This document shows, in pieces, positions 11,052 through 26,546 of a stretch of DNA of 35,520 nt. The first letter of the stretch is position 1. Each line of letters starts with the position of its first letter. Position numbers and translations under genes: made by a program. The notes beneath the pieces were generated by a model. The model saw nothing but the letters and a program-made list of their open reading frames with translations. It searched no databases and was not told the origin of the DNA. Origin of the DNA: an uncultured Monoglobus sp. (lineage in GTDB: Bacteria; Bacillota; Clostridia; Monoglobales; Monoglobaceae); contig CANRHV010000027.1 of the NCBI GenBank assembly GCA_947630505.1, positions 1-35,520 on the forward strand, in the 5' to 3' direction.

Positions 11052-11091
11052 GAGAAATTTTGAAATTTTTTGAAAAATTTTTAAAATATTT

Positions 11092-12855
11092 CTATAATCG
11101 GATCTCCACAATGGTGTTGTTCATATTCAGGACCCTTGTGTATTCCATTTTGTCCGCCATGCGTTTTATGAGCTCAATTCCGCCCAAGTTATATTTATCG
11201 GCCTCATCGCGCTTGTATTCGAGAGGATCAAAAGGAATTCCGTCGTCGCGCAGACGCAGGATCAGCAAATCCTCGTCTTTTACCAAACATATATCTATAT
11301 AACTTCTTTTTATATTTTTATAGCCGTATTTTCCGATATTGACGGTCAGCTCCTCGGCCGCGATACCCACGGTGTTGGCCTTGTTCTTGTCTATCCCTTG
11401 GCTCAAGCAATATTCAATAAGCTTTTCGGATATTCCGACCGCGTCATCAGCCGTGCCCGTGACGGTAACGTCATAGAAAACATCGCCTCCCTTGTCGGGT
11501 ATGGCGGCAAAACCTCTCTGCGGCACTTTGCCCTTTTTCTGCAAAACTGATCTTGTGACCGTAACGATAAGTATAGCCGCGATCTCGCTGACTATCATTG
11601 AGGCGAATATTCCTCTTACGCCGAACAGTATCATCGCGCCCAGCGCGAGCGGTATTTTTATAACGAACATTTCAAGCAGGGTATCAAGCGTCGCGATACC
11701 CGCCCGGCCTATTGTTCTGTAATAGTTTTGGATAATCGAGTTTACAGCGTAAAACGCGAAACTCAGGCTGAATATCCGCAGGCACTGCAGATACAGCGGC
11801 TCAAGCTCGGGTATGCTGAAGCCGTACAATTCGGAAATGAGCTGAGGAGCGGCAAGGAACACGCCAATAAGCACCGCGAAAACACCGCCTGTCACTTTTA
11901 ATATGCGCAGCAGCAGCCGCCTTATGCCGTAATAATCCTTCTCGCCGTACAGCACGCCCGCGATAGTCGGTATCACCTCAACAATGCCGTTGAGACACAG
12001 CTGAACGATAAAATTCGTGTCGTTTGTTATCGAGTAAACCGTCATCATATCCTGGCCGAGTATGTAAAGCGTGCTTGTGTTCATTATGACAAGGCTTGCC
12101 GCCGTCAGCGCGAACATTGCCATATTCGGCAGTCCGTTTTTGGCCGATTCAAGAAAAAGCGCCGATTTTTTTAGTATGCTTATTTTTTTGAATTTAAGCA
12201 TTCTTCTTTTTGATCTCAGGTATATCGGGACAAATATCGCGCCGCTTATAATATAGCCTATTATTGTAGAGGCTGTCGACGCGCCCACGCCGTAGGGCGT
12301 GTATTTGACAAGAATATAGTCGAGCGTAAGGTTTATAACATTCGCGGTTATATGAAGCGCCGCCGATATGTTCGGATTATTATCCACATTCATAAAATAT
12401 GATATTGCCAAAACCGCGCAAACGGGCCACAGGCCTATGCCGTTTACGTACAGCACGGTCTTTACCATATTATACATGTCGCCGCCTTGAGCCGCCGTGA
12501 GCTTGGCGGCGAAAAAGGGCGCGGAAGCAAGCTCGGCCACAGAGAATATCAGCGTTAGAATTATCGTCGCCAACATCGAAACCGATAGCACATCCGAAGC
12601 CGAGTCCGTGTCTCTTTTGCCGAGATAAACCGCGGCGGTCACGGAGCCGCCCATTCCCAGCAATATAGCCGGCAGCTGCAGGAACAGAAGCAGGGGCATG
12701 GCTATATTAAGCGCAGACACGGCGTAGCTTCCCATGAGGTTGCCCACTATTATCGAATCCACGAGGGAGCCGAGCTGCAGAGCCGCCGTTACCATAACGC
12801 TCGGGAGCAGATAACTGTACAGCTTTTTTCTTATAAGATAATCATTTCTTTGCAA
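11092..12855 (-). CDS. MATE-family exporter fused to an RsbW-like ATPase domain
   Basis: Of 587 residues, about 1-450 form a 12-helix MATE transporter (LVDSIIVGNLMGSYAVSALN, the FMNVDNNPNISAALH region, a second half-repeat from about 240). Residues about 455-587 are a GHKL ATPase of the anti-sigma/RsbW type: N-box EELTVNIGKYGY, G1-like RDDGIPFDP, G2-like LGGIELIKRMADKMEY. MATE proteins are cation-driven antiporters and need no ATPase, so the tail is probably regulatory. The start is TTG at 12855 after GGGGTG; the next in-frame ATG would remove most of the first helix. It lies 12 bp after the NRPS stop and is translationally close to it, so export of the NRPS product or self-protection is the likely job. 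No terminator separates it from rpsB. Confidence 0.88.
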   Translation of the reverse strand: MQRNDYLIRKKLYSYLLPSVMVTAALQLGSLVDSIIVGNLMGSYAVSALNIAMPLLLFLQLPAILLGMGGSVTAAVYLGKRDTDSASDVLSVSMLATIILTLIFSVAELASAPFFAAKLTAAQGGDMYNMVKTVLYVNGIGLWPVCAVLAISYFMNVDNNPNISAALHITANVINLTLDYILVKYTPYGVGASTASTIIGYIISGAIFVPIYLRSKRRMLKFKKISILKKSALFLESAKNGLPNMAMFALTAASLVIMNTSTLYILGQDMMTVYSITNDTNFIVQLCLNGIVEVIPTIAGVLYGEKDYYGIRRLLLRILKVTGGVFAVLIGVFLAAPQLISELYGFSIPELEPLYLQCLRIFSLSFAFYAVNSIIQNYYRTIGRAGIATLDTLLEMFVIKIPLALGAMILFGVRGIFASMIVSEIAAILIVTVTRSVLQKKGKVPQRGFAAIPDKGGDVFYDVTVTGTADDAVGISEKLIEYCLSQGIDKNKANTVGIAAEELTVNIGKYGYKNIKRSYIDICLVKDEDLLILRLRDDGIPFDPLEYKRDEADKYNLGGIELIKRMADKMEYTRVLNMNNTIVEIRL

Positions 12856-12867
12856 AGTAACACCCCA

Positions 12868-15800
12868 TTATTTTATGTCGGCCGCATTGTCAAAAAAGCC
12901 GAGGGTAACAAGAGCGTTTATCGCTCTGCTTATGTAGTTCTCGTTTATGAGCGGCCACGAGAATCCCAGCTTGTACAGCGCCTTTACGGTAAACCTGTTG
13001 ACGCTTTCAATCATTCTGTGTTCCGCGTCGTTTTCCTTGTATGATATAAGCGCCGAAACCTCCATGCTTTTTTCGTCGCTTGACAACATCTCGTTAAACC
13101 GCTTTTCGAATTCCTCGTCCGACACGTTTTTAATAATTATGCTGTTTTCGCGCATTCCCTCAATAACGTTGTCCATATGTACAAAATGCGAGTTATACGC
13201 GTGGAACACCGTAAACTTATCCGGTGTGCCGGCCAGCTTTAATATAGCCGCCGCCACACAATCTATCGGCGAAAATTCAACTTCCGTATCGAGCTCCGAT
13301 ATCGGGAAACAGCCGAGCGCCGCGTAAGCGCGCAGCGTGTTCATAAAGTTGTTGGTCCTGAAATTGGCCTGGAACTCCCCGTCATTTTCGCGGCTCATCA
13401 AATTGCCGACGCGTATTACCTTTCCTTTGAGCCCTTTGTCCCCGACCGCAGTAAGCACCGCCTTTTCGGCTCTGTGCTTGGTGTTTATATACTTGTTGTC
13501 AAGATTCTGCCCGAATTCAAGCATGCTTTCAGAAAGTTTCACATACTCGGGAATACTGCCGTTTATGCTCTCGCCGCCCACGCTTACCGTCGATATCTGA
13601 ACTAGGCTCTTGTCAAGCTCGAGGCAGGCCGATATGAGATTTTCGACACCCTCAACATTGACTTTTTCGAGTATGTCACTGTTTGTGAAATGCTTTACGC
13701 AGGCGGCGCAGTTTATCACGGTGTCAAAATCGTATCCGCGCAGCTTGTCCGTGAGATCGCTTGATGTAATGTCGCTGTCTATAACGGTGATGCCGCTTTC
13801 GAACAACTCGTCGTAGGTGTCGTCGAAATAAAACATAAGCATCATTTTAACGCGTTCCTCGGCTGTCAGCTTGCCGTTGTTGCGCGCGAGGCAGAATATC
13901 TTTTTTGCGCCGCTGTCGATAAGCTGTTTAAGCACGTGCGCGCCCAAAAATCCCGTGACGCCCGTCACCAGAACGTTTCCTATGTCCGTGTAATTAATTT
14001 CTCCGACGTGCCGCGCCGTGTTGTATTTCAGTACGTCATAAAGCGGCTCTTGTTCCTCGTTTGTATTTATTTCGGCCGCGGTTTTTGTCTCCGCGACAGG
14101 TGTTTCCGAAGCGTTCACAAACGCCGCCAGCTTCTCTGGCGTTGTGTTGTCGAAAATATCCTTATAGACGACGGGAATATTCTGCGTCATGCAGCGCACG
14201 GCTATCTTTGAGGCAAGCAGCGAAGTGCCTCCGAGTTCAAAGAAATCGTCGTCGGCATATACCGTGTCAAGGCCGAGCACAGCAGCGAACATATCGCAGA
14301 ATATCTGTTCCGTGTCGTTTGCGGCTTTTCTTCCGGCCGATCTCTGCTGCGCCGCTTCGGGTTCGGGCAGCGCCTTTTTGTCTATCTTTCCGTTTTTTGT
14401 CATCGGCAGCTTATCAAGCTGTATAAGCACCGACGGCACCATATAATGCGCGAGGGATTTTTTGAGGTGCTCGGTAAGCGCCTGCTTTTCTATCTGTTTT
14501 GAGGCGGTGAAATATCCGCACAGATATTGCTGCTGACCCTCGCCCTTTACGATAACAACGGCGTTTGTAACATCGGGATAGCCGCACATAACGTTCATTA
14601 TTTCGTCAAGCTCAACGCGGAGCCCTCTCAGCTTTACCTGATTATCCGCTCTTCCGAAAAATTCTATCTCTCCGTTTGACAGGTATCTCGCTATGTCGCC
14701 GCTGCGGTACACGCGTCCGTTTTCAAGCCGGATGAACGCCTCGGCGGTCTTTTTCTCAAGACCGACATATCCTCTCCCTACGCCGAGACCGCCTATTGCC
14801 AGCTCGCCTTTCGCGCCCGCGGGCAGGATATGTCTGTGTTTGTCGATAATATAGGCTTTGACGTTCGCCGCCGGGTTGCCTATGGTAATGTTTTCTCCGG
14901 AGGTCATCACCTTTGCTATGCAGCTGACAGTGGTTTCGGTGGGGCCGTAGCCGTTGACTATCACGGCGTCGGGACTCGCTTTGCGCAGTAATCCGTAAAG
15001 CGAGGGCGTGAACGCTTCCGCTCCGAGATCATACATCTTTATGCGCGACAAGGCCTTTGCCGCCTGAGGTATTTCCGCGATATTAGTCATGAAAGACGGC
15101 GTGCCGCACATCACTTCCACATTGTTTTCCTCTATAATTTTCGCGAGAGCGAGCGGATCGTGTATCTCCTCGTCCGTGGCTATGCACACCGTCATGCCGT
15201 TGCAAAGCGAAATGTGGATTTCCATTACGGAAAAATCAAACGATACCGCCGCAACAGAGAGCGCGGTTTTTCCGCCGTTTACATATTCAAACGTCTCTTT
15301 GTTTTTCGGGTTCGCGTTCACAAAATTACAGAGGCTGCCGTGCTCTATCATAACGCCCTTGGGTGTTCCCGTTGAGCCCGAGGTGTATATGCAGTAGGCG
15401 AGTGAGTTTTCGGGGATATCTGTTTCGGGATCAGAAGCGTTTTCATTTTGCAAAAGCTCGCTCAAGGCAAGCGCGGCGTAGGGCTTGCCGCCGAAAAGCT
15501 CCGCCCTCTCCTGTTTCAGCTCGTCCGTTGTTATGACAAAACGCGCGTGAGAATCTCTGAGACAGAAATCCACTCTGTCGTCGGGATAATCGGGCAGCAT
15601 GGGCAGGAAAGCGCCGCCGGCTTTCATTATTCCGTACTCCGCGGCGGGAATGTTGACGTCTCTCGGCAGCAGCATGCCCACGGGCTCGTCGAGCCGCACT
15701 CCCTTTTCAATAAGCGTGTGGGCTATCCTGTTGGCACGCGCGTTTAACTCGCCGTATGTCAGGCTCTCGCCGCCCGAAATAACAGCGATTCGCTCGGGAT

Positions 15801-18800
15801 GCGCCGCCGCCTGCGATTCAAACAACCTGTTCACGCTCACAAGCTCGATCGGATAATCGGTGTCGTTAAAGCTTTTAATTGCCTCGGCGTCCTCGCTTGA
15901 CAGCATTGACACCTCGCCGATATATGTGCTTGCGATAAACGAAGCCGCCGCGGCGTCCATTGAGCTCATAAAGGTCTTTATAAATCCGTCGCTGTAGAGA
16001 TTGGCGTAATATTCGGCCGCGTATTCATATGCGCCGTCTTTGATGGTTATATCCACCGAGAGCTTTGATTTCGCGGCGTCAAGGCTCAGGGTCGTTACAG
16101 CGCATTTTTCACCGCCGATAACATGCTCGGAAATGCCGCTGTCCTGATACGCGACCATTATGTCCGCGCTGACGCCGTATTCTCTTGAAATTTCCGCGAA
16201 GGAATAAACGTCATTTTCCATGCTGTCAAGCAGCTGCGAGCCTGTTTCCTTAACAAGCTCCAAAACGGTCCTTTGGCCGTCGATATCGCAGTATACGGGC
16301 AGCGTCTTTACAAACATTCCCAGAGAATTTTCCGTTCGGGAATCGCTCCTGCCGTTGTATATCGTTGTGAATACCGCGTCGTCGGCGTTATTATATCTTC
16401 CGAGAACAAAGCCGAACACCGCGTTGAAAAAGCCGTTCGGAGTAACTTTGTGCTTTTGGCAGTACGCCTCTACCTCTTTCGGCGAAAGCGAGGAACGCAA
16501 GGTCATAAAGCCCGCTTTGGTTTCGCTCTCGTTTTTGTCGGGCTTTGGCAGACAGTCGGCGTCGCAGCCGCCGAGCAGCGAGGCGTAATAGTCCTTCGCT
16601 TTTACATACTCCTCGGAGGCTCTCGCCTTTTCCTCCGAAAGCGCGGCTTCGAAGCTCGAATATGATTCCGCGGCGAGCCCCTCGCCGTCATAAGCCCTCG
16701 AGATATCTCTCAGAATAATGCTTAGAGAGGCGCCGTCGCTTATGATATGGTGCGTTTCGAGGAACAAATACAAGCCGTCAGCCTTTATCAGTTTCGCGCT
16801 GAACAATCTTCCACCGAGCAGATTATAAGGCTTGGCGAGCCGCGGTTTTATGCTTTCTATATCATCGGCGGCAACGGTTTCTATCGAGCTCTCGTCAAAT
16901 GAAAGGTCGCCGTCTGATCTGCGCTGTCTGATATTGCCGTCGTCGTCCATAAACAATCTCGTTTTAATATACGGGTGCGCGTTGATCGCCCGGATAACGG
17001 CGGTTTTAAGTCTGTCTTCGTCAATGCCGCCGCCGAGCTTGAGCAGCACGGGAATATTATATATGGTGGTTTCGGGGTGAGCTATCGCCTCGACGAAAAT
17101 TCCCTCCTGCGTTTTTGTGAGCGGATAGTCGGATTGTATCTCAAAAACTTCGGACTTTTCGGCATTGGCAAAAAACCGTTCGAGTTTTTGAACGGTGTTG
17201 TTTTCTTTGAGGTCGGAGGTCTTTACGGGCGCGTCGAAGGCTTTTGAAAGCAGCACATTCAGTCTTACGGCGCCGATTGATGAAAGACCCGCGTCATAAA
17301 TATCGGTAGTGATGCCGAAATCGGCATAGCCGAGCGCCTCCGCTGTAAGATCGAATATTTTTTGCTGCGTTTCGTTTTGCGGCGGTATAATTTCATTCTG
17401 TTTTCTCACGGGTTTCGGCAGCTCACGCTTATTGACCTTTTGGTTCTGGTTCAGAGGGATCGACGGTATCTGCATGGTTACGGACGGGACCATATATGAC
17501 GGCTTGCGCTCTCTTATAAAATCATTCAGAGCCGAAATATTAATTTCGCCGTCGCCGACAATATATGCCGCGATATATTTTTCGCCCGTTTCCTCGTCCT
17601 CAAAAGCCTGAACGGTGGCGTCCGTCACGCCGTCAAATTCTCGTATAACTCCCTCGACCTCGGTCAATTCGATGCGGAAACCGCGCACCTTGACCTGTCC
17701 GTCGTTTCTTCCGATAAAATCTATTTCTCCGTTTGGCAAAAGTCGAACCACGTCTCCGGAGCGATACGCTCTTTTGTAGTCCTCGTCGTCGCTGAACGGG
17801 TTGCGAATAAAGGCTTTTTCGGTCAGGTCGTCTCTGTTCAGATAGCCTCTCGCGACGCCGCGGCCCGCGATAAGCAGCTCGCCCGGAACAAGAGGCGGCA
17901 GTCTGCGGAGATTCTCATCCACAACATAGCATTTATAATTCGCGATAGCCTTGCCGATAGGCACTCTTTCATAAAGCCGCTTAACCGGCATGACCGTGGT
18001 AAATATTGTGCACTCCGTCGGGCCGTAGCAGTTATAGAAACGCGTGTCCGTGTCCTTCGGACGGACGGGCACAAGCTTTTCTCCGCCGACCGAGAGATAT
18101 TTCAGCTTTTCGGGAGAGGCCATGGAATAGAACTGCCGTCCTATCTGCGTCGTCATAAATGAATGGGTTATACCGAGCCTGTCAAACCATTTTTCAAGCT
18201 CTATAAGATCAAGTCTTATTTCCTCTTCAACAATGCAGACGCAGGCGCCCGCTGTCAGCGCGGGATACATATCCATCATATTCGCGTCAAACCCATAGCT
18301 GGCGTAAGCCGCGGCGCGGGAATGCTCGTCCATTTTATAGAAGTCTCTGTACCAGCGGCAGAAATTGGCGATATTGCCGTGCTCAAGCATTACGCCCTTG
18401 GGCACGCCCGTTGATCCCGACGTGTAAAGCAGAGTGAACAGATCGTTCGGCTCGGGGTCTTTTTCTATTCTGCCGAGGTCGGGAAGATCGGGTATATCCT
18501 TTGTGAGCAATATCGCGCCTTTGTATTCGGGCGCTTTTGAAAGCAGCTCCTCGTCGGCTATAAGCAGCTTCGCGTCCGCGTCCGACATCATAAACTCCAG
18601 GCGGTCGGCGGGATGCGCGGGATCGAGCGGCTGATAAGCGGCGCCCGATTTAAGCGCACCCAAAGAGGCTGTTACCATATAGGCGCATCTCGGTATAAGT
18701 ATCGAAACAACGTCGCCGCCGCCGATGCCGAGCGAGCGTATTTTGTTCGCTATGCGCTCCGAAATATCATCGACCTGCGAATAGGTAAGTATTTCATCTT

Positions 18801-21800
18801 TAAAGCGCACCGCGCGTCTGTCGGGATATTTTGCCGCCTGCTCCCTGAACATTGACACGATATTAGCAGCGGGATAATCCGTTTCCGTTTGGTTAAAGCG
18901 CTCAATTTCGGCGATATTTTCATCGGTTACAAGGCGGATATCTTTGAGCTTACCGCCGCCGCAAAGGCCCGCCGCTATCATTGTGTATACTTCCGCCATG
19001 CGCTTTACGGTCTCAGCCGACAGCTTTTCGGCGGCGTATTCAAATCTGAGCCGATAGTCTCCGCTGTTCTGCTTGAGCACATGAAGCGTGAGCGACGTCA
19101 TCACATCCTCCGAAACGTGCATTTCCATAGGGATGTACCTGCCGTCCACATTCACGCCGGAGAGCATATCGCCCTGATATACAAAGAAACAGTCGGGGCG
19201 TATGCCGTACTCGCCGCAAAGCTGCGGGATATCCGCGCCGTCATGGGCGACAAGCTCATGGAAGGATCTTTGCATATCCGCCATAAAATCCGCGCAGTCC
19301 GCGTTTTCGTCAATATGCGCGAGCACAGGCAGATTGTGCACCATCATGCCGACGGTGTTCTGCAAAACGGGGTCGTGTCTGCCGTTTTCGCCTGTGAAGA
19401 AAATCACGTTTTGCTGATTACAGAAAAGTTTCAGCATATACGCGTAAGCGCTCATAAACAGCGTGCTTTCGGTAAGCTGATGTTCGCTTAAAGACGCGAT
19501 AAGCCTGCCCGACAGCTCCTGTCTTTGGGTAAAAAGCGTGGTGTTATACACGCCGAGTTTGCCCGTAAATTCGACAAGCTCGGGATCGTCGTCGTTGTAA
19601 AGCTCGGTGTCGCCCTCGATATTATCGAGCATTTTTCTGTATACTTCGTTGTCGACTTGAGTAATTTCGGGATGCGCCGCCTCGTACTGCGCGAGGGTCA
19701 GGTTGCTCATTTCCTCTTTGGCGGGCGGTTCGCCGCCGAATACCGCGGCAATATTGCCTATTATGATCGAGGCCGAGGTACCGTCGCAGATAATATGGTG
19801 CATAACAAGCACAAGACACAGTCCCGCGGGCGTTTTGAAAATAACCGCGCGCGTGAGAAGGTCGTTTTCCAGATCAAAAGGCAGATCGACGCTTTTGGCA
19901 AGCGTGTTTTTGTCGGTGACCTCAGTCTGTTTTATTTCCGCCGTTATTTTCCTGCCCGAGGGCGCGAGCGACGGAACGCCGTCTATTATTTTAACCGACG
20001 CGCCGAGTATCGGATAATCGCTCAGCACCGTTTCAACGGCGTTTTTAAGACGCGTTTCGTCCGCCATATCGCTCGGCAGCAAAAGCGAGAACACGTTGTT
20101 GTACGCGGTTCCCTTTTCGTCCTGACAATCAAGGTAAATGCTCATCTGCGCCCTTGTGAGCGGATACGAATCGGCCTCCTCGCCTTTATATGACGATAAC
20201 TCCGAGCCGTCTCCGACGGTCTCCGAAAGCAGCTTCGGGGTCTGCGAAGTGAAAACCGAGCTCGCGGATATTTCTATTCCTTTTTCTCTCAACGCCTTTT
20301 GAAGCATTAGCACTTTTATTGAATCGCCGCCGAGCGCGAAAAACTCGTCGTTAATTCCTATATTTTCAATGCCGAGAATTTCCTCAAACGCCTGCGCGAT
20401 AAGCCTTTGCCTGTCGTTTTCGGGAGCTTTGTATTCGGCGCGCCTTAAATCGATCTCGGGTTTGGGCAGTGCCATGCGGTCAAGCTTGCCGTTCGCGTTC
20501 ACGGGCAGCTTTTCAAGGCGCACAAAAAACTCCGGCACCATATATTGGGGCAGCTTAGATGAAAGGGCTTTTTTCATCTCTTTTTCGTCCTTTTCGCCGC
20601 TTGATATGTAATACGCCGCGAGGAATATCTGCCCGGTCGCGTCCATAAAATCCTTTACCGCCGTGTCGCTTATGCCGTCTATCTCGCGTATGGCGGATTC
20701 TATCTCGCCCGGCTCAACGCGCTGGCCGTTTATTTTCAGCATCCAGTCCTTGCGGTTGAGATACAGAATGTTTCCGTCGGGCAGGCGTTTGCCGAGATCG
20801 CCCGTGTGAATAAGCACGTCGTGGCCGTCGATGTTTTTAAACGGATTCGGAGTAAAGGCTCTGGCGGTCTCTTCGGGGCGGTGCAAATATCCTTTTGCCA
20901 TATGACCCGCGATGCAGATCTCGCCCTCGTCGGCAAGATTCCCGTTTTCGTCAAGCACATAAGCGCTCACATTGCCGCTCGGCTTTCCTATGGGAGTGTT
21001 GTCATAGGCTTTGTCCACAACGAATGTGAGGCACTCTCCCGTGAGCTCCGTCATGCCGTAGCAGTTCAAAAGCCGATAGCCGTCCGGCGCTATCTGCGAC
21101 AAACGCTCGCCGCAGCTCACAACGGTGCGCAGGCTGTCGCCCTTTCGGGTGAAGTAGCGCAATACCTTCGGCATTATAACGGCTGAGGTTATTTTGTGCT
21201 CGTCGATAAAATCGGCAAGGCTTTCGGGGTCGCCTTTTAATTCATCGGGAATTATTATTTCGGTAATGCCGTTCGCGAGGCCCGTGAAAATATCACCCAC
21301 CGATAGAATAAAATAGAACGCGACATTGATTCCGTATATATCATCATCTTTAAGCTCCAAAATGCCGCTGTAAAGCATGACCTCGTTTTTTATCGACTCA
21401 TGATCGTGGATAACTCCTTTGGGTTTTCCGGTTGAGCCCGAGGTATAAATTATAAGCGCGGTATCATCGGGCTTTACGCCGCATATTTCCGATACGGGCT
21501 CAAAGCGGTACGCATCGTTTATAAAATCGTCGTCGATGACGATCTTCGCGCCGCAGTCACTTTGTATGTACGCCTTGCGGTCCGCTGGATAATGGTCGGA
21601 AAGCGGCACATAGGCGCCTCCCGCCATAAGTATGCCGAACATGGCCTCTATAAATCCGATGCCCCTAGCGGCGGTTATCATCACGGCGTCGCCGCGCCGA
21701 ATACCCTGCTCTTTAAGCTTAGCAGTAATGCGGCGCGCGTTTTCGTCAAGCTGCCCGTAGGTGTCCGTCCTGCCCGTTGACGGTTCCGACAAGGCGATCC

Positions 21801-21843
21801 TGTCGCCGTGCTTCATGGCTTGTTCTCTGAATAAATTCAACAT
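12868..21843 (-). CDS. Trimodular non-ribosomal peptide synthetase with terminal reductase
   Basis: The 2991-residue cytoplasmic synthetase reads A1(1-460)-T1(Ser508 in LGGDSI)-C2(555-975; HHIICDG at 682-688)-A2(990-1478)-T2(Ser1522 in AGLSSI)-C3(1570-1985; HHIISDG at 1698-1704)-A3(2003-2495)-T3(Ser2541 in LGGTSL)-reductase(2615-2991; TGVTGFLG at 2627-2634, Tyr2785/Lys2789 of YxxxK). There is no epimerase, methylase or thioesterase. Each A domain has the YTSGSTG loop and an A10 lysine. Three carrier domains imply three building blocks, and the Lys2/CAR-type reductase should release the chain as an aldehyde or alcohol; related gut clostridial enzymes give peptide aldehydes and pyrazinones. A1 lacks the Asp that holds the alpha-amino group. 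The product is unknown. No phosphopantetheinyl transferase is in the window. It is the first gene of the operon with the MATE exporter, from the promoter at 21962-21990. Confidence 0.95.
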   Translation of the reverse strand: MLNLFREQAMKHGDRIALSEPSTGRTDTYGQLDENARRITAKLKEQGIRRGDAVMITAARGIGFIEAMFGILMAGGAYVPLSDHYPADRKAYIQSDCGAKIVIDDDFINDAYRFEPVSEICGVKPDDTALIIYTSGSTGKPKGVIHDHESIKNEVMLYSGILELKDDDIYGINVAFYFILSVGDIFTGLANGITEIIIPDELKGDPESLADFIDEHKITSAVIMPKVLRYFTRKGDSLRTVVSCGERLSQIAPDGYRLLNCYGMTELTGECLTFVVDKAYDNTPIGKPSGNVSAYVLDENGNLADEGEICIAGHMAKGYLHRPEETARAFTPNPFKNIDGHDVLIHTGDLGKRLPDGNILYLNRKDWMLKINGQRVEPGEIESAIREIDGISDTAVKDFMDATGQIFLAAYYISSGEKDEKEMKKALSSKLPQYMVPEFFVRLEKLPVNANGKLDRMALPKPEIDLRRAEYKAPENDRQRLIAQAFEEILGIENIGINDEFFALGGDSIKVLMLQKALREKGIEISASSVFTSQTPKLLSETVGDGSELSSYKGEEADSYPLTRAQMSIYLDCQDEKGTAYNNVFSLLLPSDMADETRLKNAVETVLSDYPILGASVKIIDGVPSLAPSGRKITAEIKQTEVTDKNTLAKSVDLPFDLENDLLTRAVIFKTPAGLCLVLVMHHIICDGTSASIIIGNIAAVFGGEPPAKEEMSNLTLAQYEAAHPEITQVDNEVYRKMLDNIEGDTELYNDDDPELVEFTGKLGVYNTTLFTQRQELSGRLIASLSEHQLTESTLFMSAYAYMLKLFCNQQNVIFFTGENGRHDPVLQNTVGMMVHNLPVLAHIDENADCADFMADMQRSFHELVAHDGADIPQLCGEYGIRPDCFFVYQGDMLSGVNVDGRYIPMEMHVSEDVMTSLTLHVLKQNSGDYRLRFEYAAEKLSAETVKRMAEVYTMIAAGLCGGGKLKDIRLVTDENIAEIERFNQTETDYPAANIVSMFREQAAKYPDRRAVRFKDEILTYSQVDDISERIANKIRSLGIGGGDVVSILIPRCAYMVTASLGALKSGAAYQPLDPAHPADRLEFMMSDADAKLLIADEELLSKAPEYKGAILLTKDIPDLPDLGRIEKDPEPNDLFTLLYTSGSTGVPKGVMLEHGNIANFCRWYRDFYKMDEHSRAAAYASYGFDANMMDMYPALTAGACVCIVEEEIRLDLIELEKWFDRLGITHSFMTTQIGRQFYSMASPEKLKYLSVGGEKLVPVRPKDTDTRFYNCYGPTECTIFTTVMPVKRLYERVPIGKAIANYKCYVVDENLRRLPPLVPGELLIAGRGVARGYLNRDDLTEKAFIRNPFSDDEDYKRAYRSGDVVRLLPNGEIDFIGRNDGQVKVRGFRIELTEVEGVIREFDGVTDATVQAFEDEETGEKYIAAYIVGDGEINISALNDFIRERKPSYMVPSVTMQIPSIPLNQNQKVNKRELPKPVRKQNEIIPPQNETQQKIFDLTAEALGYADFGITTDIYDAGLSSIGAVRLNVLLSKAFDAPVKTSDLKENNTVQKLERFFANAEKSEVFEIQSDYPLTKTQEGIFVEAIAHPETTIYNIPVLLKLGGGIDEDRLKTAVIRAINAHPYIKTRLFMDDDGNIRQRRSDGDLSFDESSIETVAADDIESIKPRLAKPYNLLGGRLFSAKLIKADGLYLFLETHHIISDGASLSIILRDISRAYDGEGLAAESYSSFEAALSEEKARASEEYVKAKDYYASLLGGCDADCLPKPDKNESETKAGFMTLRSSLSPKEVEAYCQKHKVTPNGFFNAVFGFVLGRYNNADDAVFTTIYNGRSDSRTENSLGMFVKTLPVYCDIDGQRTVLELVKETGSQLLDSMENDVYSFAEISREYGVSADIMVAYQDSGISEHVIGGEKCAVTTLSLDAAKSKLSVDITIKDGAYEYAAEYYANLYSDGFIKTFMSSMDAAAASFIASTYIGEVSMLSSEDAEAIKSFNDTDYPIELVSVNRLFESQAAAHPERIAVISGGESLTYGELNARANRIAHTLIEKGVRLDEPVGMLLPRDVNIPAAEYGIMKAGGAFLPMLPDYPDDRVDFCLRDSHARFVITTDELKQERAELFGGKPYAALALSELLQNENASDPETDIPENSLAYCIYTSGSTGTPKGVMIEHGSLCNFVNANPKNKETFEYVNGGKTALSVAAVSFDFSVMEIHISLCNGMTVCIATDEEIHDPLALAKIIEENNVEVMCGTPSFMTNIAEIPQAAKALSRIKMYDLGAEAFTPSLYGLLRKASPDAVIVNGYGPTETTVSCIAKVMTSGENITIGNPAANVKAYIIDKHRHILPAGAKGELAIGGLGVGRGYVGLEKKTAEAFIRLENGRVYRSGDIARYLSNGEIEFFGRADNQVKLRGLRVELDEIMNVMCGYPDVTNAVVIVKGEGQQQYLCGYFTASKQIEKQALTEHLKKSLAHYMVPSVLIQLDKLPMTKNGKIDKKALPEPEAAQQRSAGRKAANDTEQIFCDMFAAVLGLDTVYADDDFFELGGTSLLASKIAVRCMTQNIPVVYKDIFDNTTPEKLAAFVNASETPVAETKTAAEINTNEEQEPLYDVLKYNTARHVGEINYTDIGNVLVTGVTGFLGAHVLKQLIDSGAKKIFCLARNNGKLTAEERVKMMLMFYFDDTYDELFESGITVIDSDITSSDLTDKLRGYDFDTVINCAACVKHFTNSDILEKVNVEGVENLISACLELDKSLVQISTVSVGGESINGSIPEYVKLSESMLEFGQNLDNKYINTKHRAEKAVLTAVGDKGLKGKVIRVGNLMSRENDGEFQANFRTNNFMNTLRAYAALGCFPISELDTEVEFSPIDCVAAAILKLAGTPDKFTVFHAYNSHFVHMDNVIEGMRENSIIIKNVSDEEFEKRFNEMLSSDEKSMEVSALISYKENDAEHRMIESVNRFTVKALYKLGFSWPLINENYISRAINALVTLGFFDNAADIK

Positions 21844-21961
21844 TTCATATTCATCTCCTTCGTTTTGGATTTATACGGTTACGCTTTTAATATCACATCT
21901 TCGAAAAGCGCTGCCGCCCATGCACCGGCGGACAAACCGTTCCGAAATTTTATTTACTTTA

Positions 21962-21990
21962 ATCGTATCACAAAAATTGTGATATTTCAA
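21962..21990 (-). promoter_or_regulatory. NRPS promoter with operator-like palindrome between -35 and -10
   Basis: On the minus strand TTGAAA (21985-21990), 17 bp, then TACGAT (21962-21967). The palindrome TATCACA-ATTTT-TGTGATA (21966-21984) fills the spacer and takes the first two bases of the -10. A protein bound there would exclude RNA polymerase. The leader is about 110 bases. Confidence 0.65.
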
Positions 21991-22008
21991 CAATAAATTG
22001 CCGATTTG

Positions 22009-22041
22009 AAACTTATTTTATAGCATATATAAAATAAGTTT
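22009..22041. promoter_or_regulatory. Perfect 14-bp inverted repeat upstream of the NRPS promoter
   Basis: Arms aaacttattttata and tataaaataagttt flank the 5-base spacer gcata. It is centred about 70 bp upstream of the inferred NRPS start site and about 175 bp from the kinase promoter. It is probably a protein-binding site. It is AT-rich and could also melt or form a cruciform. The rest of 22042-22170 shows nothing I can assign. Confidence 0.5.
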
Positions 22042-22174
22042 AACATTTTTTGCTCTTAAATTCAACGCTTTGACATAAAAGTCATCTATAGCGGCGTGAA
22101 CGGCATTCTATTCGGGGGCTTGGCGGACAAAGCCGGTTAACAGATAGTGCCACTCGGCTGTCATTTTCGGGGTA

Positions 22175-22203
22175 TTGATTTGTTTTCGCGCTTATGATAT
22201 AAT
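22175..22203 (+). promoter_or_regulatory. Sigma-A promoter of the sensor kinase gene
   Basis: TTGATT (22175-22180), exact 17-bp spacer, TATAAT (22198-22203). It is nearly identical to the Fic promoter at 23627-23655, spacer included. Confidence 0.85.
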
Positions 22204-22295
22204 ATTTTAAAATTATATAGCCGCGATGAAAAATTCCGATAAGCCTAAAAAATCATAACCGAATTTACAAATTTTACCGAAAAGGAACCTTATGT

Positions 22296-23588
22296 ATGAA
22301 CATATATTATTTTGCCGATATATTGACCGTAATATTTGAGGCTTTTATGATATTTATTTTTTTGGAAACATTATTCGAGGAACGAAGTATTTTTCCGAAA
22401 TGGGTATATGTCATAGGAGTCGGAATTTTGTCGGGGTTGCTGCTGCTGAGCAATGCCGTTTTCAGCTTTAATTTGCTTAACGCGTTCGCGATGGCGCTTT
22501 CGGTATTTATCGTATCTCTGATGTATAAAGGTTCCGCGGCGCTGAAGCTTATCGCGTCGATCACCAGTATTCTGTTTATCGGCGTGATCGAAATAATTGT
22601 AATGTTTTTTATCACATGGATCTTTAACATAACGGCCGAGGAAGCTGTCCAAATACCCGAATACCGCGTTTTGGGAATAATGGTTTCAAAGCTTGCCGCG
22701 CTGGCCGGATTTACTATATTGAGGGTAAAACTGAAAGGGCATGAATTTGATATAGGAACTTCTTACTGGCCGCTGTTTTTCTGCTTGTTTGCCAATTCGA
22801 TAGTCGCGGTGTTTTTGCTTTTTAAAATGTCGTATGAGCTAAAAGACACTCCCATGAATAATCTTGCGATAATCTGTTCGTTCGGGCTCCTGTTCAGCAC
22901 GATATTCGCCCTGTATTTATATGAGCATCTGGCAAAGCAAAGCTATGAAATATCAAAAAATAAAATGCTTGAGGTGCAGCTAAAAGAGCAGTTAAAGCAT
23001 TATGACAATATAATGATGACGCAGGGCCAGGTAAAGAAAATCCGGCACGACCTTGATAATCACCTGCACGCGATAAAGGCGTATATTGAAAAAGACGAAA
23101 ACGAAAACTGCCTGAAATATATCGAGAGGCTTATCGGCGGCATTTCAAAAAGCGACTCATATATTGACACGGGGAACACGGTCCTTGACGCGATACTGAC
23201 GTTAAAGAAAACCGCGGCCAAAGAAAAAAATATTGAATTTAACCTAAAAATATGTATTCCGAAAGATCTGCCTATGTCCCACGAGGACGAGTGTATTATA
23301 TTCGGAAACGCCTTGGATAACGCTATAGAGGCCTGCGATAAAGTAAAAGAAAACAGATATATTAACGTTTATATGCAATATGACAGAGACAAATTAATAT
23401 GCAAAATTACAAATTCATGCGCAAATGAAAGCGATAAGCCCAAAGTCACGACCAAAAAAGATGAGAAAAACCACGGCATCGGCACAGATAACATCATGAA
23501 AGCCCTTGATAATTATAAAAGCGTTTCAAAGGTTACGCGCTCCGATAATGAATACGAGTTGTTTTTTATAATAATGGATCTGATATAA
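22296..23588 (+). CDS. AgrC-like GHKL sensor histidine kinase, no adjacent response regulator
   Basis: The 430-residue protein has six or seven hydrophobic helices in residues 1-215, a short linker helix, and a SpoB/AgrC-type phosphoacceptor IRHDLDNHLHAIKAY with His251. A GHKL ATPase domain follows, with N-box GNALDNAIEAC and G2-like GIGTDNIMKAL. The architecture is that of quorum-sensing peptide receptors (AgrC, ComD, DUF/GHKL group), membrane-bound and signalling by phosphotransfer to a LytTR regulator. No such regulator, AgrB or pro-peptide gene is seen nearby. AAGGA lies nine bases before the ATG at 22296; an ATG at 22292 is out of frame. It is divergent from the NRPS, which suggests, but does not show, control of that operon. 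Confidence 0.9.
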   Translation: MNIYYFADILTVIFEAFMIFIFLETLFEERSIFPKWVYVIGVGILSGLLLLSNAVFSFNLLNAFAMALSVFIVSLMYKGSAALKLIASITSILFIGVIEIIVMFFITWIFNITAEEAVQIPEYRVLGIMVSKLAALAGFTILRVKLKGHEFDIGTSYWPLFFCLFANSIVAVFLLFKMSYELKDTPMNNLAIICSFGLLFSTIFALYLYEHLAKQSYEISKNKMLEVQLKEQLKHYDNIMMTQGQVKKIRHDLDNHLHAIKAYIEKDENENCLKYIERLIGGISKSDSYIDTGNTVLDAILTLKKTAAKEKNIEFNLKICIPKDLPMSHEDECIIFGNALDNAIEACDKVKENRYINVYMQYDRDKLICKITNSCANESDKPKVTTKKDEKNHGIGTDNIMKALDNYKSVSKVTRSDNEYELFFIIMDLI

Positions 23589-23626
23589 AACTTAGGCGCA
23601 AAACACAGCGTTATTTCCCTTGAGTA

Positions 23627-23655
23627 TTGATTTATTTTTGCTCTTATGATATAAT
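23627..23655 (+). promoter_or_regulatory. Sigma-A promoter of the Fic gene
   Basis: TTGATT (23627-23632), 17 bp, TATAAT (23650-23655). The spacer differs from that of the kinase promoter at only three positions. It begins about 40 bp past the kinase stop. Confidence 0.85.
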
Positions 23656-23689
23656 ATTATTAGGCAAATCAATATTTAAGGAGCGAGAA

Positions 23690-24667
23690 ATGGAATACAA
23701 ACCTCCGTTCACCATTAATGAAAATATAATAAATATGCTTGCCGAGATCAGCGAGTTAGTCGGCCAGATAGGCGTTACGAGCAAAGACAATATCAGCCCG
23801 AGACTGCGCCGCGACAACAGAATAAAAACGATCCACTCGTCATTGGCTATAGAGCACAACACGCTGTCGCTTGATCAGGTCACCGCCGTGATAAACGGCA
23901 AGCGTGTTCTTGGCGAGCCTCGGGAGATCCGCGAGGTTCAAAACGCCTATGACGCTTATGAAGTAATACGCGAATTTGATCCTTTCAAAATCGAGGATCT
24001 GCTCAGGGCGCACGGCATAATGATGAACGGGCTTGTGAGCGAAAGCGGCTGTTTCCGAACAGGCGACGTGGGAATATTTGACGGCGACAAGCTTGTTCAC
24101 GCCGCGCCTCCCGCGGACCTTGTGCCGCAGCTGATTTCGAACCTTTTTAGGTGGTACGCGGAGACCGAGATACACATACTGATAAAAAGCTGTATATTCC
24201 ATTATGAATTTGAGTTCATACATCCGTTTTCCGACGGCAACGGCCGAATTGGCAGGATGTGGCACACTCTGCTGCTCAGCCGATGGAACAAGATATTTGA
24301 GTGGCTCCCGATCGAGGAGCTTATCAAGGAGCGCCAAAAGGATTACTACAACGCTTTGGCGGCCTCGGACAAGAGCGCCGATTGCGCCGACTTTGTTGAA
24401 ATGATGATGAAAGTCATCCGTGACGCTTTACTAAGTCTTAACAAAACCGACCAAGATACCGACCAAGTAAGCGACCAAGTTAAAGCGCTGCTTGACTGCT
24501 TGGGAAACAAAGAACTGTCCGCGGTTCAGCTGATGGAACGCCTTAACCTCTCCCACCGCCCCACATTCAGAAAAAACTATCTGCGCCCCGCCCTTGAATC
24601 CGGTCTGATAGAAATGACTATCCCGAATAAGCCAAACAGCCGAAATCAAAAATACAGAAAAAAGTAA
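23690..24667 (+). CDS. Fic family protein with C-terminal winged helix
   Basis: The 325-residue protein has a Fic_N region, the Fic core and a DNA-binding-like tail. The catalytic motif HPFSDGNGRIGR is complete at residues 178-189, so AMP transfer to a target hydroxyl is expected. The N-terminal helix SSLAIEHNTLS (about residues 47-57) matches the class II autoinhibitory motif [S/T]xxxE[G/N] loosely, with His after the Glu. The tail from about residue 245 (DQDTDQVSDQVKALL, then ELSAVQLMERLNLSHRPTF) is a winged helix seen in many Fic proteins. AAGGAG lies six bases before the ATG at 23690; the frame is open further upstream through the promoter and was not used. The target is unknown. No small antitoxin gene precedes it. 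Confidence 0.93.
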   Translation: MEYKPPFTINENIINMLAEISELVGQIGVTSKDNISPRLRRDNRIKTIHSSLAIEHNTLSLDQVTAVINGKRVLGEPREIREVQNAYDAYEVIREFDPFKIEDLLRAHGIMMNGLVSESGCFRTGDVGIFDGDKLVHAAPPADLVPQLISNLFRWYAETEIHILIKSCIFHYEFEFIHPFSDGNGRIGRMWHTLLLSRWNKIFEWLPIEELIKERQKDYYNALAASDKSADCADFVEMMMKVIRDALLSLNKTDQDTDQVSDQVKALLDCLGNKELSAVQLMERLNLSHRPTFRKNYLRPALESGLIEMTIPNKPNSRNQKYRKK

Positions 24668-24720
24668 TTCATAATTGATCATTAAATAACGACCAAATAA
24701 CGACCAAAACGGATTTTCGG

Positions 24721-24764
24721 AAAAAGCAAAACCCCCGAAACGCCGCAAAATCGGGCATTTCGGG
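24721..24764 (-). terminator. Rho-independent terminator of the tRNA gene
   Basis: On the minus strand CCCGAAA...TTTCGGG (24734-24740 with 24758-24764), with inner GCC/GGC pairs, is followed by GGTTTTGCTTTTT. It lies about 10 bp after the CCA end. It may also serve the convergent Fic gene poorly from the other side. Confidence 0.75.
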
Positions 24765-24774
24765 AGCTTTAGAC

Positions 24775-24851
24775 TGGTGGACCTTCAGGGACTCGAACCC
24801 CGGGCCGACCGGTTATGAGCCGGTTGCTCTAACCAACTGAGCTAAAGGTCC
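24775..24851 (-). tRNA. tRNA with CAU anticodon (elongator Met or lysidine Ile2)
   Basis: A 77-base gene with encoded CCA. Acceptor GGACCTT pairs with AAGGTCC, the D arm is AGCTCAGTTGGTTAGAGC, the anticodon stem is ACCGG-CTCATAA-CCGGT giving anticodon CAT, and the T arm is CCGGG-GTTCGAG-TCCCTG with an imperfect pair. The GGACCUUUAG 5' end resembles Firmicute tRNA-Ile2, where the C is converted to lysidine by TilS, more than tRNA-fMet. Elongator Met cannot be excluded from sequence alone. Confidence 0.95.
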
Positions 24852-24883
24852 ATAAGTTAATTGCTCCGCGCAGGAACTTTTAT

Positions 24884-24912
24884 ATTATAGTATATTATTA
24901 TTGATTTGTCAA
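24884..24912 (-). promoter_or_regulatory. Consensus sigma-A promoter of the tRNA gene
   Basis: Perfect TTGACA (24907-24912), 17-bp spacer, perfect TATAAT (24884-24889), about 25 bp upstream of the mature tRNA 5' end. Confidence 0.92.
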
Positions 24913-24989
24913 GGGTTAATTTTGAAAAACTGAATAAAATTTTTTTGGATTTTATTATTAAATTTTGCTCTATTATGGGGTAAAATTAT

Positions 24990-25018
24990 TTGACTTATGG
25001 TTTTAAATGGTGTACAAT
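24990..25018 (+). promoter_or_regulatory. Sigma-A promoter of the GH3-ABC operon
   Basis: TTGACT (24990-24995), 17 bp, TACAAT (25013-25018). The start of the secreted hexosaminidase is about 43 bp after the -10. Confidence 0.8.
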
Positions 25019-25061
25019 AAAATATGATACTGAAATTTTGCCTGTGGAAAGAGGTTTTTAT

Positions 25062-26546
25062 ATGAAGAAATTTTTGATCGGACTTTTGATATTTTGCGCG
25101 GCATTTACCGCGCCCGCTCTCTCGGCTTACGCGGAGGACAACAACAAAGTGACGGTGTATGTCAACGACCAAAAGCTCGCTTTTGACGCCGAGCCTATCG
25201 TGCTCGGGGGCAGGATCATGGTTCCGATGCGCGCTATTTTTGAAGCTTTGGGAGCCAATGTCAGCTGGGATTCGGGCACAAGAACAGCTATAGGCGTTAA
25301 GGACGGCGTTTCGGTCAGCCTGACTATCGGCAGCGGAACGATGTATGTTAATAACAAAAGCGTCGCTTTGGACGCGGCTCCCGTGCTCAGCGCGAGCGGC
25401 GACAGAACTTTGATCCCTCTGCGCGCCGTGTCCGAGGCGTACAGCTATGACGTCGAGTGGGAAAATTCCACAAAATCGGCGTATATCGGCACGCACGCGC
25501 GGCTTGATAACCTCAAAAACAGAGTTTCGGCAATGACGCTTGACGAAAAAATATATCAAATGATGATCGTGACTCCCGAGAGCATAACCGGCGTCGAGCG
25601 TGCCACATCCGCGGGCGACGCTACCAAAAGCGCCCTTGAGACCTATCCTGTGGGCGGCCTGATCTATTTCGCGCAAAATATTGAGGGCGCGGATCAGATA
25701 AAGCAGATGATAGCGAATACTCAGAGCTTCGCCAAAACGCCGCTGTTTATCTGCGTTGACGAGGAGGGCGGAAGCGTTTCGCGTCTGGGAAAGGCAAATA
25801 TCGGATTCCCCGCGATATCCTCGATGCGCGATATCGGAAACACCGGAGACACCGCCGCCGCGGCTGAAGTTGGAAACATTCTCGGCGCGAATCTTAAGGA
25901 TTTCGGCTTTAACGTGGACTTTGCCCCGGTGGCGGATGTGAACATAATCAGCAACTCCGCGCTGGGCAGCCGCTCGTTCGGCTCAGATCCGAATCTCGTG
26001 GCCTCGATGGTCGCGAGCGAGATAACCGCTATGCAGGACGCGGGAACAAGCGCCTGCGTTAAGCACTTCCCCGGCATGGGCTCGTCAAGCGCCGATACTC
26101 ACAACGGATTTGTAAAGACAAACAGAACGCTTGAGCAGTTCAGTTCCGCCGAGTTTATGCCCTTTGCGGCAGCGGCGCGGGCCGATGTTGACTTTGCCAT
26201 GGTCGGACATATCTCGGTTCCCGGAATAACCGGAAACGATATTCCGGCGTCTCTCTCGTCGATGATGATCTCAATACTGAGAAACGATATCGGATTCAGC
26301 GGAGTTGTTACCACGGACGCGCTGAACATGGGCGCGATAAACAATATATACACCACCACCGACGCCTGCGTGTCGGCGGTCCAAGCCGGAGTTGACATTC
26401 TGCTCATGCCGTCTGATATAAACGAGGCGCACTACGCTATCGGCACGGCGGTGCAAAACGGCGCGATCTCGGTTGAGAGGATCGACGAGAGCGTTATGAG
26501 AATACTTGACGCGAAGATGACAAGAGGATTGATTCCGGAGAATTAA
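25062..26546 (+). CDS. Secreted GH3 beta-N-acetylhexosaminidase with copper-amine-oxidase-N-like domain
   Basis: The 494-residue protein has a signal peptide (MKKFLIGLLIFCAAF..., cleavage near AYAE). Residues about 30-147 form a copper-amine-oxidase-N-like domain, two copies of a strand-turn unit (GGRIMVPMRAIFEALGANVS and RTLIPLRAVSEAYSYDVEW). Residues about 155-490 are a GH3 NagZ-like barrel. The NagZ signature KHFPG (334-338) is followed by DTH (345-347), whose His is the expected acid/base, and TDALNMG places the nucleophile at Asp419. NagZ-type enzymes remove N-acetylglucosamine from muropeptides or glycans; here export suggests action in the wall or on outside glycans. AGAGG precedes the ATG, and the open frame upstream contains the promoter. 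The ABC exporter genes follow after 28 bp. Confidence 0.92.
   Translation: MKKFLIGLLIFCAAFTAPALSAYAEDNNKVTVYVNDQKLAFDAEPIVLGGRIMVPMRAIFEALGANVSWDSGTRTAIGVKDGVSVSLTIGSGTMYVNNKSVALDAAPVLSASGDRTLIPLRAVSEAYSYDVEWENSTKSAYIGTHARLDNLKNRVSAMTLDEKIYQMMIVTPESITGVERATSAGDATKSALETYPVGGLIYFAQNIEGADQIKQMIANTQSFAKTPLFICVDEEGGSVSRLGKANIGFPAISSMRDIGNTGDTAAAAEVGNILGANLKDFGFNVDFAPVADVNIISNSALGSRSFGSDPNLVASMVASEITAMQDAGTSACVKHFPGMGSSSADTHNGFVKTNRTLEQFSSAEFMPFAAAARADVDFAMVGHISVPGITGNDIPASLSSMMISILRNDIGFSGVVTTDALNMGAINNIYTTTDACVSAVQAGVDILLMPSDINEAHYAIGTAVQNGAISVERIDESVMRILDAKMTRGLIPEN

What the first reader, a model, noticed from the sequence alone, without database searches (positions are those of the whole stretch)
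12868..23588. NRPS-exporter operon with reductive release, facing an orphan sensor kinase
A three-module synthetase ending in a reductase, a MATE exporter with an ATPase tail and a divergent AgrC-like kinase form a compact locus. The layout predicts a small, reactive peptide aldehyde or its derivative that is exported and perhaps controlled by an external signal. Domain order and motifs are seen directly; product class follows from known reductase-terminated NRPSs; the kinase link is inferred from divergence.
Basis: partly seen in the sequence, partly recalled or inferred. Interest (0 to 1): 0.72.

Follow-up and report, generated by a model that had tools for sequence, protein, structure and literature searches.

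The report
Gut bacterial peptide-aldehyde synthetase with regulated exporter
A rabbit-gut bacterium carries a two-gene unit that should make and export a small reactive peptide aldehyde; its first building block is probably not an amino acid, its exporter carries a protein-kinase-like regulator domain common to a wider gut family, and the neighbouring sensor kinase is probably a bystander.

Summary
In detail: a 2991-aa A-T-C-A-T-C-A-T-R synthetase, a MATE exporter with an ATPase tail 12 bp downstream (outside the quoted range), and a divergent GHKL kinase. The interpretation needs three changes. (1) The synthetase is better read as a loading didomain plus a dipeptide-aldehyde line. A1 lacks the two residues typical of amino-acid activation (Asp235 to Ile; YGP to YGM). 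All 34 readable starter A domains of this type have Val/Ile, against Asp in 159 of 159 internal ones. The same pair of changes marks a structurally solved alpha-keto-acid domain. The following C domain groups with starter C domains. (2) The MATE tail is an RsbW/SpoIIAB-type domain, by motifs and by a confident model. In a survey chosen without regard to neighbours, MATEs with this tail lie beside SpoIIE phosphatase or STAS genes in 14 of 17 places, tail-less MATEs in 0 of 18. This genome holds both partners elsewhere. It suggests partner-switching control of export or expression. (3) The kinase is not a conserved part: absent beside the NRPS in four of four close relatives with full flanks, on the other side in a fifth. 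A new variant of the known gut dipeptide-aldehyde family; the product was not determined.

The parts
12868..21843 (-). NRPS, 2991 aa, A-T-C-A-T-C-A-T-R
20449..21843 (-). A1 loading adenylation domain without Asp235 (Ile179 in FILSVGD; Met264 in YGMTE)
20218..20403 (-). T1 carrier domain
18889..20181 (-). C2 condensation domain, groups with starter-type C domains; sister to the N-terminal C of L035
17404..18876 (-). A2 adenylation domain, code DAMQSG-C-I-F, Asp235 present
15880..17136 (-). C3 condensation domain
14344..15846 (-). A3 adenylation domain, code DFMSDG-G-V-S, Asp235 present
12889..13986 (-). Terminal reductase domain (Rossmann motif, YxxxK present)
11092..12855 (-). MATE exporter with C-terminal HATPase_c_2, 587 aa, TTG start, 12 bp after the NRPS
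11095..11493 (-). RsbW/SpoIIAB-like ATPase tail (N-box Glu and Asn506, G1 Asp-x-Gly near 537-539 and G2 glycines near 558 kept)
21844..22107 (-). Upstream region of the NRPS operon, conserved with G003 and G009 to 22107; holds the putative promoter (not tested)
22296..23588 (+). GHKL (AgrC-like) sensor kinase, judged a neighbour and not part of the system; conserved cassette 22250-23590

Best explanation
A two-gene operon makes and exports an N-capped dipeptide aldehyde. A1-T1 loads a carboxylic acid without an alpha-amino group, most specifically an alpha-keto acid; a starter-type C domain joins it to the amino acid of module 2; module 3 adds a second amino acid; the R domain releases the chain as an aldehyde. 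The MATE protein exports it. Its cytosolic RsbW-like tail binds, and probably phosphorylates, a STAS protein set by a SpoIIE-type phosphatase; in this genome these would be the pair on contig C3. Partner switching thereby ties export, or transcription, to a signal. Shown: domain order, residue changes, tail fold (model), linkage statistics, presence of the partners in the genome. Inferred: acid type, product, export substrate, the STAS interaction and its output. The sensor kinase is a recombined neighbour.
For: Starter A domains: Val/Ile at position 235 in 34 (window and six near-copies included), Asp in 159/159 internal ones; YGP proline lost in 32/32 readable starters of this type, kept in 158/158 internal. 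The solved alpha-keto-acid domain StsA has both changes, Ile and Met (PMC11253843). 29 of 30 such starters form one clade, SH-aLRT 100. C2 falls in a clade of C domains after such starters plus starter Cs (98), sister to the N-terminal C of L035, whose line is 79% identical in its best segment but lacks A-T. R domain. Tail: HATPase_c_2, model pLDDT 86, top Foldseek hits SpoIIAB and RsbW. Fusions beside SpoIIE/STAS 14/17, tail-less MATE 0/18, p=3e-7. Own genome: SpoIIE-HATPase 945 aa beside STAS 100 aa on C3; Sfp-like PPTase on C40; STAS Ser 32/32.
Against: McyG has Val at 235 and is listed as Phe-activating, so the change does not exclude an amino acid. No KR domain follows A1, unlike known keto-acid modules of depsipeptide lines (own knowledge). 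The window's A1 code (ILGKVCCGE) is unlike that of most relatives. STAS and SpoIIE are not beside this operon. No tail-STAS contact was modelled. Loci are not independent, and trees are quick ones with some long branches.
Confidence: 0.5

Rival explanations
1. A1 activates an ordinary hydrophobic amino acid despite the missing Asp; the product is a tripeptide aldehyde with a free amine that may cyclise.
For: Three A and three T domains; McyG precedent of Val at 235 in a domain listed as Phe-activating; closest solved relatives of A1 are amino-acid domains of LgrA.
Against: Loss of Asp235 and of the YGP proline together in a whole starter clade, never in internal domains; C2 groups with starter C domains.
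Confidence: 0.2
2. A1 loads a simple carboxylic acid (short, branched or arylalkyl) instead of an alpha-keto acid; the product is an acyl dipeptide aldehyde, like ruminopeptin but with A-T loading instead of a starter C at the N-terminus.
For: Known gut relatives are N-acylated dipeptide aldehydes (PMC8518294, PMC12327764); sister synthetases with a starter C; a hydrophobic residue at 235 does not itself require a keto group.
Against: The specific Ile + Met pair matches StsA.
Confidence: 0.35
3. The RsbW-like tail is not a partner-switching kinase but a degenerate or purely structural regulatory domain of the MATE.
For: In the genus's second NRPS locus the tail has lost the N-box Asn and the G1 Asp; residues vary among fusions.
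Against: Window tail keeps all motifs; fusions lie beside SpoIIE/STAS in 14/17 against 0/18.
Confidence: 0.3
4. The divergent kinase controls the NRPS operon.
For: Adjacent here and, on the other side of the operon, in G009; AgrC-like kinases lie within 6 kb of 9 of 78 NRPS loci, mostly Lachnospiraceae.
Against: Absent beside the operon in G004, G006, G011 and L037; orthologues at 90-91% in G004, G010 and G002 sit away from any such operon, beside or near LytTR regulators, and G010 and G002 lack this NRPS; Lachnospiraceae kinases are no closer to it than paralogues elsewhere in this genome.
Confidence: 0.12

Closest known systems
Gut dipeptide aldehyde synthetases (ruminopeptin of Ruminococcus bromii; N-octanoyl-Met-Phe-H from MIBiG BGC0001686)
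   Same: Gut anaerobes, reductase-terminated line, two Asp235-containing modules before R, expected N-capped dipeptide aldehyde
   Different: Those products are N-acylated (PMC8518294), by my own knowledge through a starter C; here an A-T loading didomain without Asp235 precedes the starter-type C
Aureusimine synthetase AusA (A-T-C-A-T-R)
   Same: Best NCBIfam match (1668 bits, below its 2500 cut-off); related R domain
   Different: AusA has two amino-acid modules and no loading didomain (own knowledge); its family cut-off is not met
StsA, alpha-keto-acid adenylation domain of a depsipeptide synthetase
   Same: Ile in place of Asp235 and Met in place of the YGP proline (PMC11253843)
   Different: A1 here has no KR partner and belongs to a reductase-terminated line
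RsbW/SpoIIAB partner-switching kinases and anti-sigma factors
   Same: Fold of the MATE tail, ATP-site motifs, gene linkage to STAS and SpoIIE-type phosphatases
   Different: Here fused to a MATE exporter; no sigma factor identified

Membership tests
Gut dipeptide-aldehyde NRPS family | Terminal R domain with intact Rossmann and YxxxK motifs | tested here: met
Gut dipeptide-aldehyde NRPS family | Two amino-acid-activating modules before R | tested here: met
   A2 and A3 keep Asp235
Gut dipeptide-aldehyde NRPS family | N-terminal starter C domain for acylation (subgroup of ruminopeptin type) | tested here: not met
   Line begins with A-T; the starter-type C comes after it. Not filed in this subgroup
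Gut dipeptide-aldehyde NRPS family | Dipeptide aldehyde product | not testable with these tools
   needs culture or expression
Aureusimine synthetase (NF047350) | Score above curated cut-off | tested here: not met
   1667.6 against 2500 bits
Alpha-keto-acid A domains (StsA type) | Hydrophobic residue at 235 and loss of the YGP proline | tested here: met
Alpha-keto-acid A domains (StsA type) | KR domain in the module | tested here: not met
   No KR in module 1; A1 is about 465 aa. It may work like StsA but is not filed as a member
Alpha-keto-acid A domains (StsA type) | Activation of alpha-keto acids | not testable with these tools
   needs enzyme assay
Partner-switching kinases (RsbW/SpoIIAB) | Fold and N-box, G1, G2 residues | tested here: met
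Partner-switching kinases (RsbW/SpoIIAB) | STAS partner with phosphorylatable Ser and PP2C-type phosphatase in the genome | tested here: met
   C3 of G000, Ser53
Partner-switching kinases (RsbW/SpoIIAB) | Binding and phosphorylation of the STAS protein | not testable with these tools
   needs purified proteins
AgrC-type two-component system | Adjacent LytTR response regulator | tested here: not met
   None in window; present beside the orthologues in G004 and G010, and next to the G002 orthologue on its other side

The most novel reading that the evidence does not exclude
A widespread gut system in which a small-molecule exporter itself carries the partner-switching kinase, so that a STAS protein and a sensor phosphatase gate export of an alpha-ketoacyl dipeptide aldehyde, a compound with two electrophilic groups.
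Probability: 0.22. Interest if true: 0.78.

Novelty: new variant of a known kind. Interest (0 to 1): 0.55.

Why it matters
Peptide aldehydes from gut bacteria inhibit host and bacterial proteases, yet how they are capped, exported and controlled is poorly known. The findings give a testable starter-unit rule for a large synthetase group with members in Bacillota, Bacteroidota and Actinomycetota records, and name an exporter family with a built-in partner-switching domain, with or without an NRPS beside it. I found no paper describing that fusion in the library searched.

Tried and rejected
Kinase as a conserved part: rejected by synteny. Tripeptide product: disfavoured by A1 and C2 evidence. 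Tail as a histidine kinase: the best Foldseek hits are SpoIIAB/RsbW, histidine kinases come later and weaker; a sequence search of solved structures gave nothing for the tail. Exact amino acids of A2 and A3: codes read, but no reference table on hand, so no substrate claimed. Paper searches for MATE with anti-sigma or SpoIIE/STAS, or in NRPS loci, found nothing relevant; a subscription paper could have been missed, and the published ruminopeptin locus was not checked for a tailed MATE. L051, L058 and L059 read as A-T-C-A-T-R with Asp starters; their ORFs are long enough to hide an unrecognised N-terminal domain. L096 is a frame-split fragment. L060 and L079 are real exceptions (Asp starter, internal-type A domain).

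Full report
What is there. The window is contig C27 of a 2.7-Mb assembly; its close relatives are Monoglobus MAGs named Lapin, that is rabbit. On the minus strand an NRPS of 2991 aa is followed after 12 bp by a 587-aa MATE protein with an ATPase tail; a GHKL kinase stands divergent upstream. Ribosomal protein S2 and EF-Ts lie beyond the MATE, a Fic gene beyond the kinase.

Synthetase. Domain order is A-T-C-A-T-C-A-T-R. I extracted A-domain pocket residues from 78 related loci plus the window. Of 41 N-terminal A domains, 34 have Val or Ile where Asp235 contacts the amino group, six have Asp, one is a fragment; all 159 internal A domains have Asp. Seven of the 34 are Monoglobus copies of one enzyme, the window's included. 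The proline of YGPTE is absent in all 32 readable starters of this type and present in all 158 readable internal ones. A review reports that StsA, the solved alpha-keto-acid domain, has Ile at 235 and Met at the proline, and that the latter was shown by mutation to matter (PMC11253843); the window has Ile179 and Met264. The same review lists McyG with Val at 235 as Phe-activating, so the reading is strong but not proof.

Phylogeny. 29 of 30 such starters form one supported clade with members from Bacillota, Bacteroidota and Actinomycetota records plus one record labelled Euryarchaeota; one (L097) arose apart. The C domain after the loading didomain groups, in the window and most Bacillota, with some starter C domains and not with internal ones (support 98); its sister is the N-terminal C of L035, a C-A-T-C-A-T-R synthetase 79% identical in its best segment that has no loading didomain. 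Nine of the 29 C domains after such starters fall elsewhere, so this holds for the window's group, not for all. I conclude that module 1 supplies a cap. Known relatives make N-acylated dipeptide aldehydes (PMC8518294, PMC12327764).

Exporter. Of 43 loci with at least 5 kb on both sides, 30 have a MATE within 6 kb, 23 with a detected ATPase tail, 26 a STAS gene, 23 a SpoIIE-type phosphatase, 15 a PPTase, six an AgrC-like kinase. These loci are not independent of each other. Pfam confirms STAS, SpoIIE with a Cache-type sensor, HATPase_c_2 and PPTase in representatives. To escape the NRPS-based choice I searched 291 genomes of the class with the MATE and fetched 17 tailed and 18 tail-less hits, chosen without regard to neighbours: SpoIIE or STAS genes lie near 14 and 0 (Fisher p=3e-7). 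Most of these tailed MATEs have no NRPS beside them; two have GH3-type adenylating enzymes. So the fusion belongs first to partner switching and secondly to small-molecule synthesis.

Tail. AlphaFold2 on 50 aligned tails gave pLDDT 86, pTM 0.82; the ten best Foldseek hits in the PDB are SpoIIAB, RsbW and UsfX. The window tail keeps the N-box Glu and Asn and the G1 and G2 residues. The genome has a SpoIIE-HATPase protein of 945 aa beside a 100-aa STAS protein on contig C3, apart from the likely sporulation set, and an Sfp-like PPTase on C40. The phosphorylatable serine is invariant in 32 aligned STAS proteins. What the switch controls, transport or a sigma factor, is unknown.

Kinase. Orthologues at 90-95% exist in G009, G010, G002 and G004. 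In G004 and G010 the kinase follows a LytTR regulator; in G002 a LytTR regulator lies next to it on the other side; none of these three is near an NRPS. In G009 the kinase follows the MATE on the same strand. G004, G006, G011 and L037 have NRPS-MATE without it. DNA comparison shows sharp borders: rpsB-upstream homology ends near 11082 and MATE homology starts at 11092; kinase homology runs from about 22250 to 23590; the Fic block from 23611 matches G006, where Fic follows the MATE. A 35-bp near-repeat (91%) lies on both sides of the kinase (22172-22206, 23624-23658). The kinase therefore looks like a separately moving gene. A chimeric contig cannot be excluded without reads.

Verdict. Ordinary in class, unusual in two parts: a loading didomain, probably for a non-amino acid, shared by a large gut group, and a MATE exporter carrying a partner-switching domain. 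Product, export substrate and regulation are predictions.

Noticed in passing
window 11082-11092, 22172-22206, 22250-23590, 23611-25077: Sharp gene-precise homology borders against other Monoglobus genomes and a 35-bp near-repeat around the kinase suggest shuffling of single genes or operons in this genus.
   Followed up: partly
L157 (G000:C6:1-16000), 4033-5709: A second NRPS in the same genome has a MATE of 558 aa whose tail has lost N-box and G1 residues, a natural degenerate version.
   Followed up: partly
L121:7077-8681, L134:4283-5845, cluster c6 in Lachnospiraceae loci: GH3-type acyl-adenylating enzymes accompany tailed MATE and SpoIIE genes without an NRPS (L121, L134); a similar-looking 567-aa protein, not scanned, recurs beside the NRPS in Lachnospiraceae.
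   Followed up: partly
L087: A record titled Euryarchaeota archaeon MAG carries a synthetase of this kind with STAS and SpoIIE genes; transfer or a mis-binned contig.
   Followed up: no
window 3323-8860 (-): 1845-aa protein with a signal-like N-terminus and many short repeated Asn/Cys-rich segments; weak Big_2 match only.
   Followed up: no
window 24775-24851 (-): tRNA-Met (CAT) gene beside the Fic gene.
   Followed up: no
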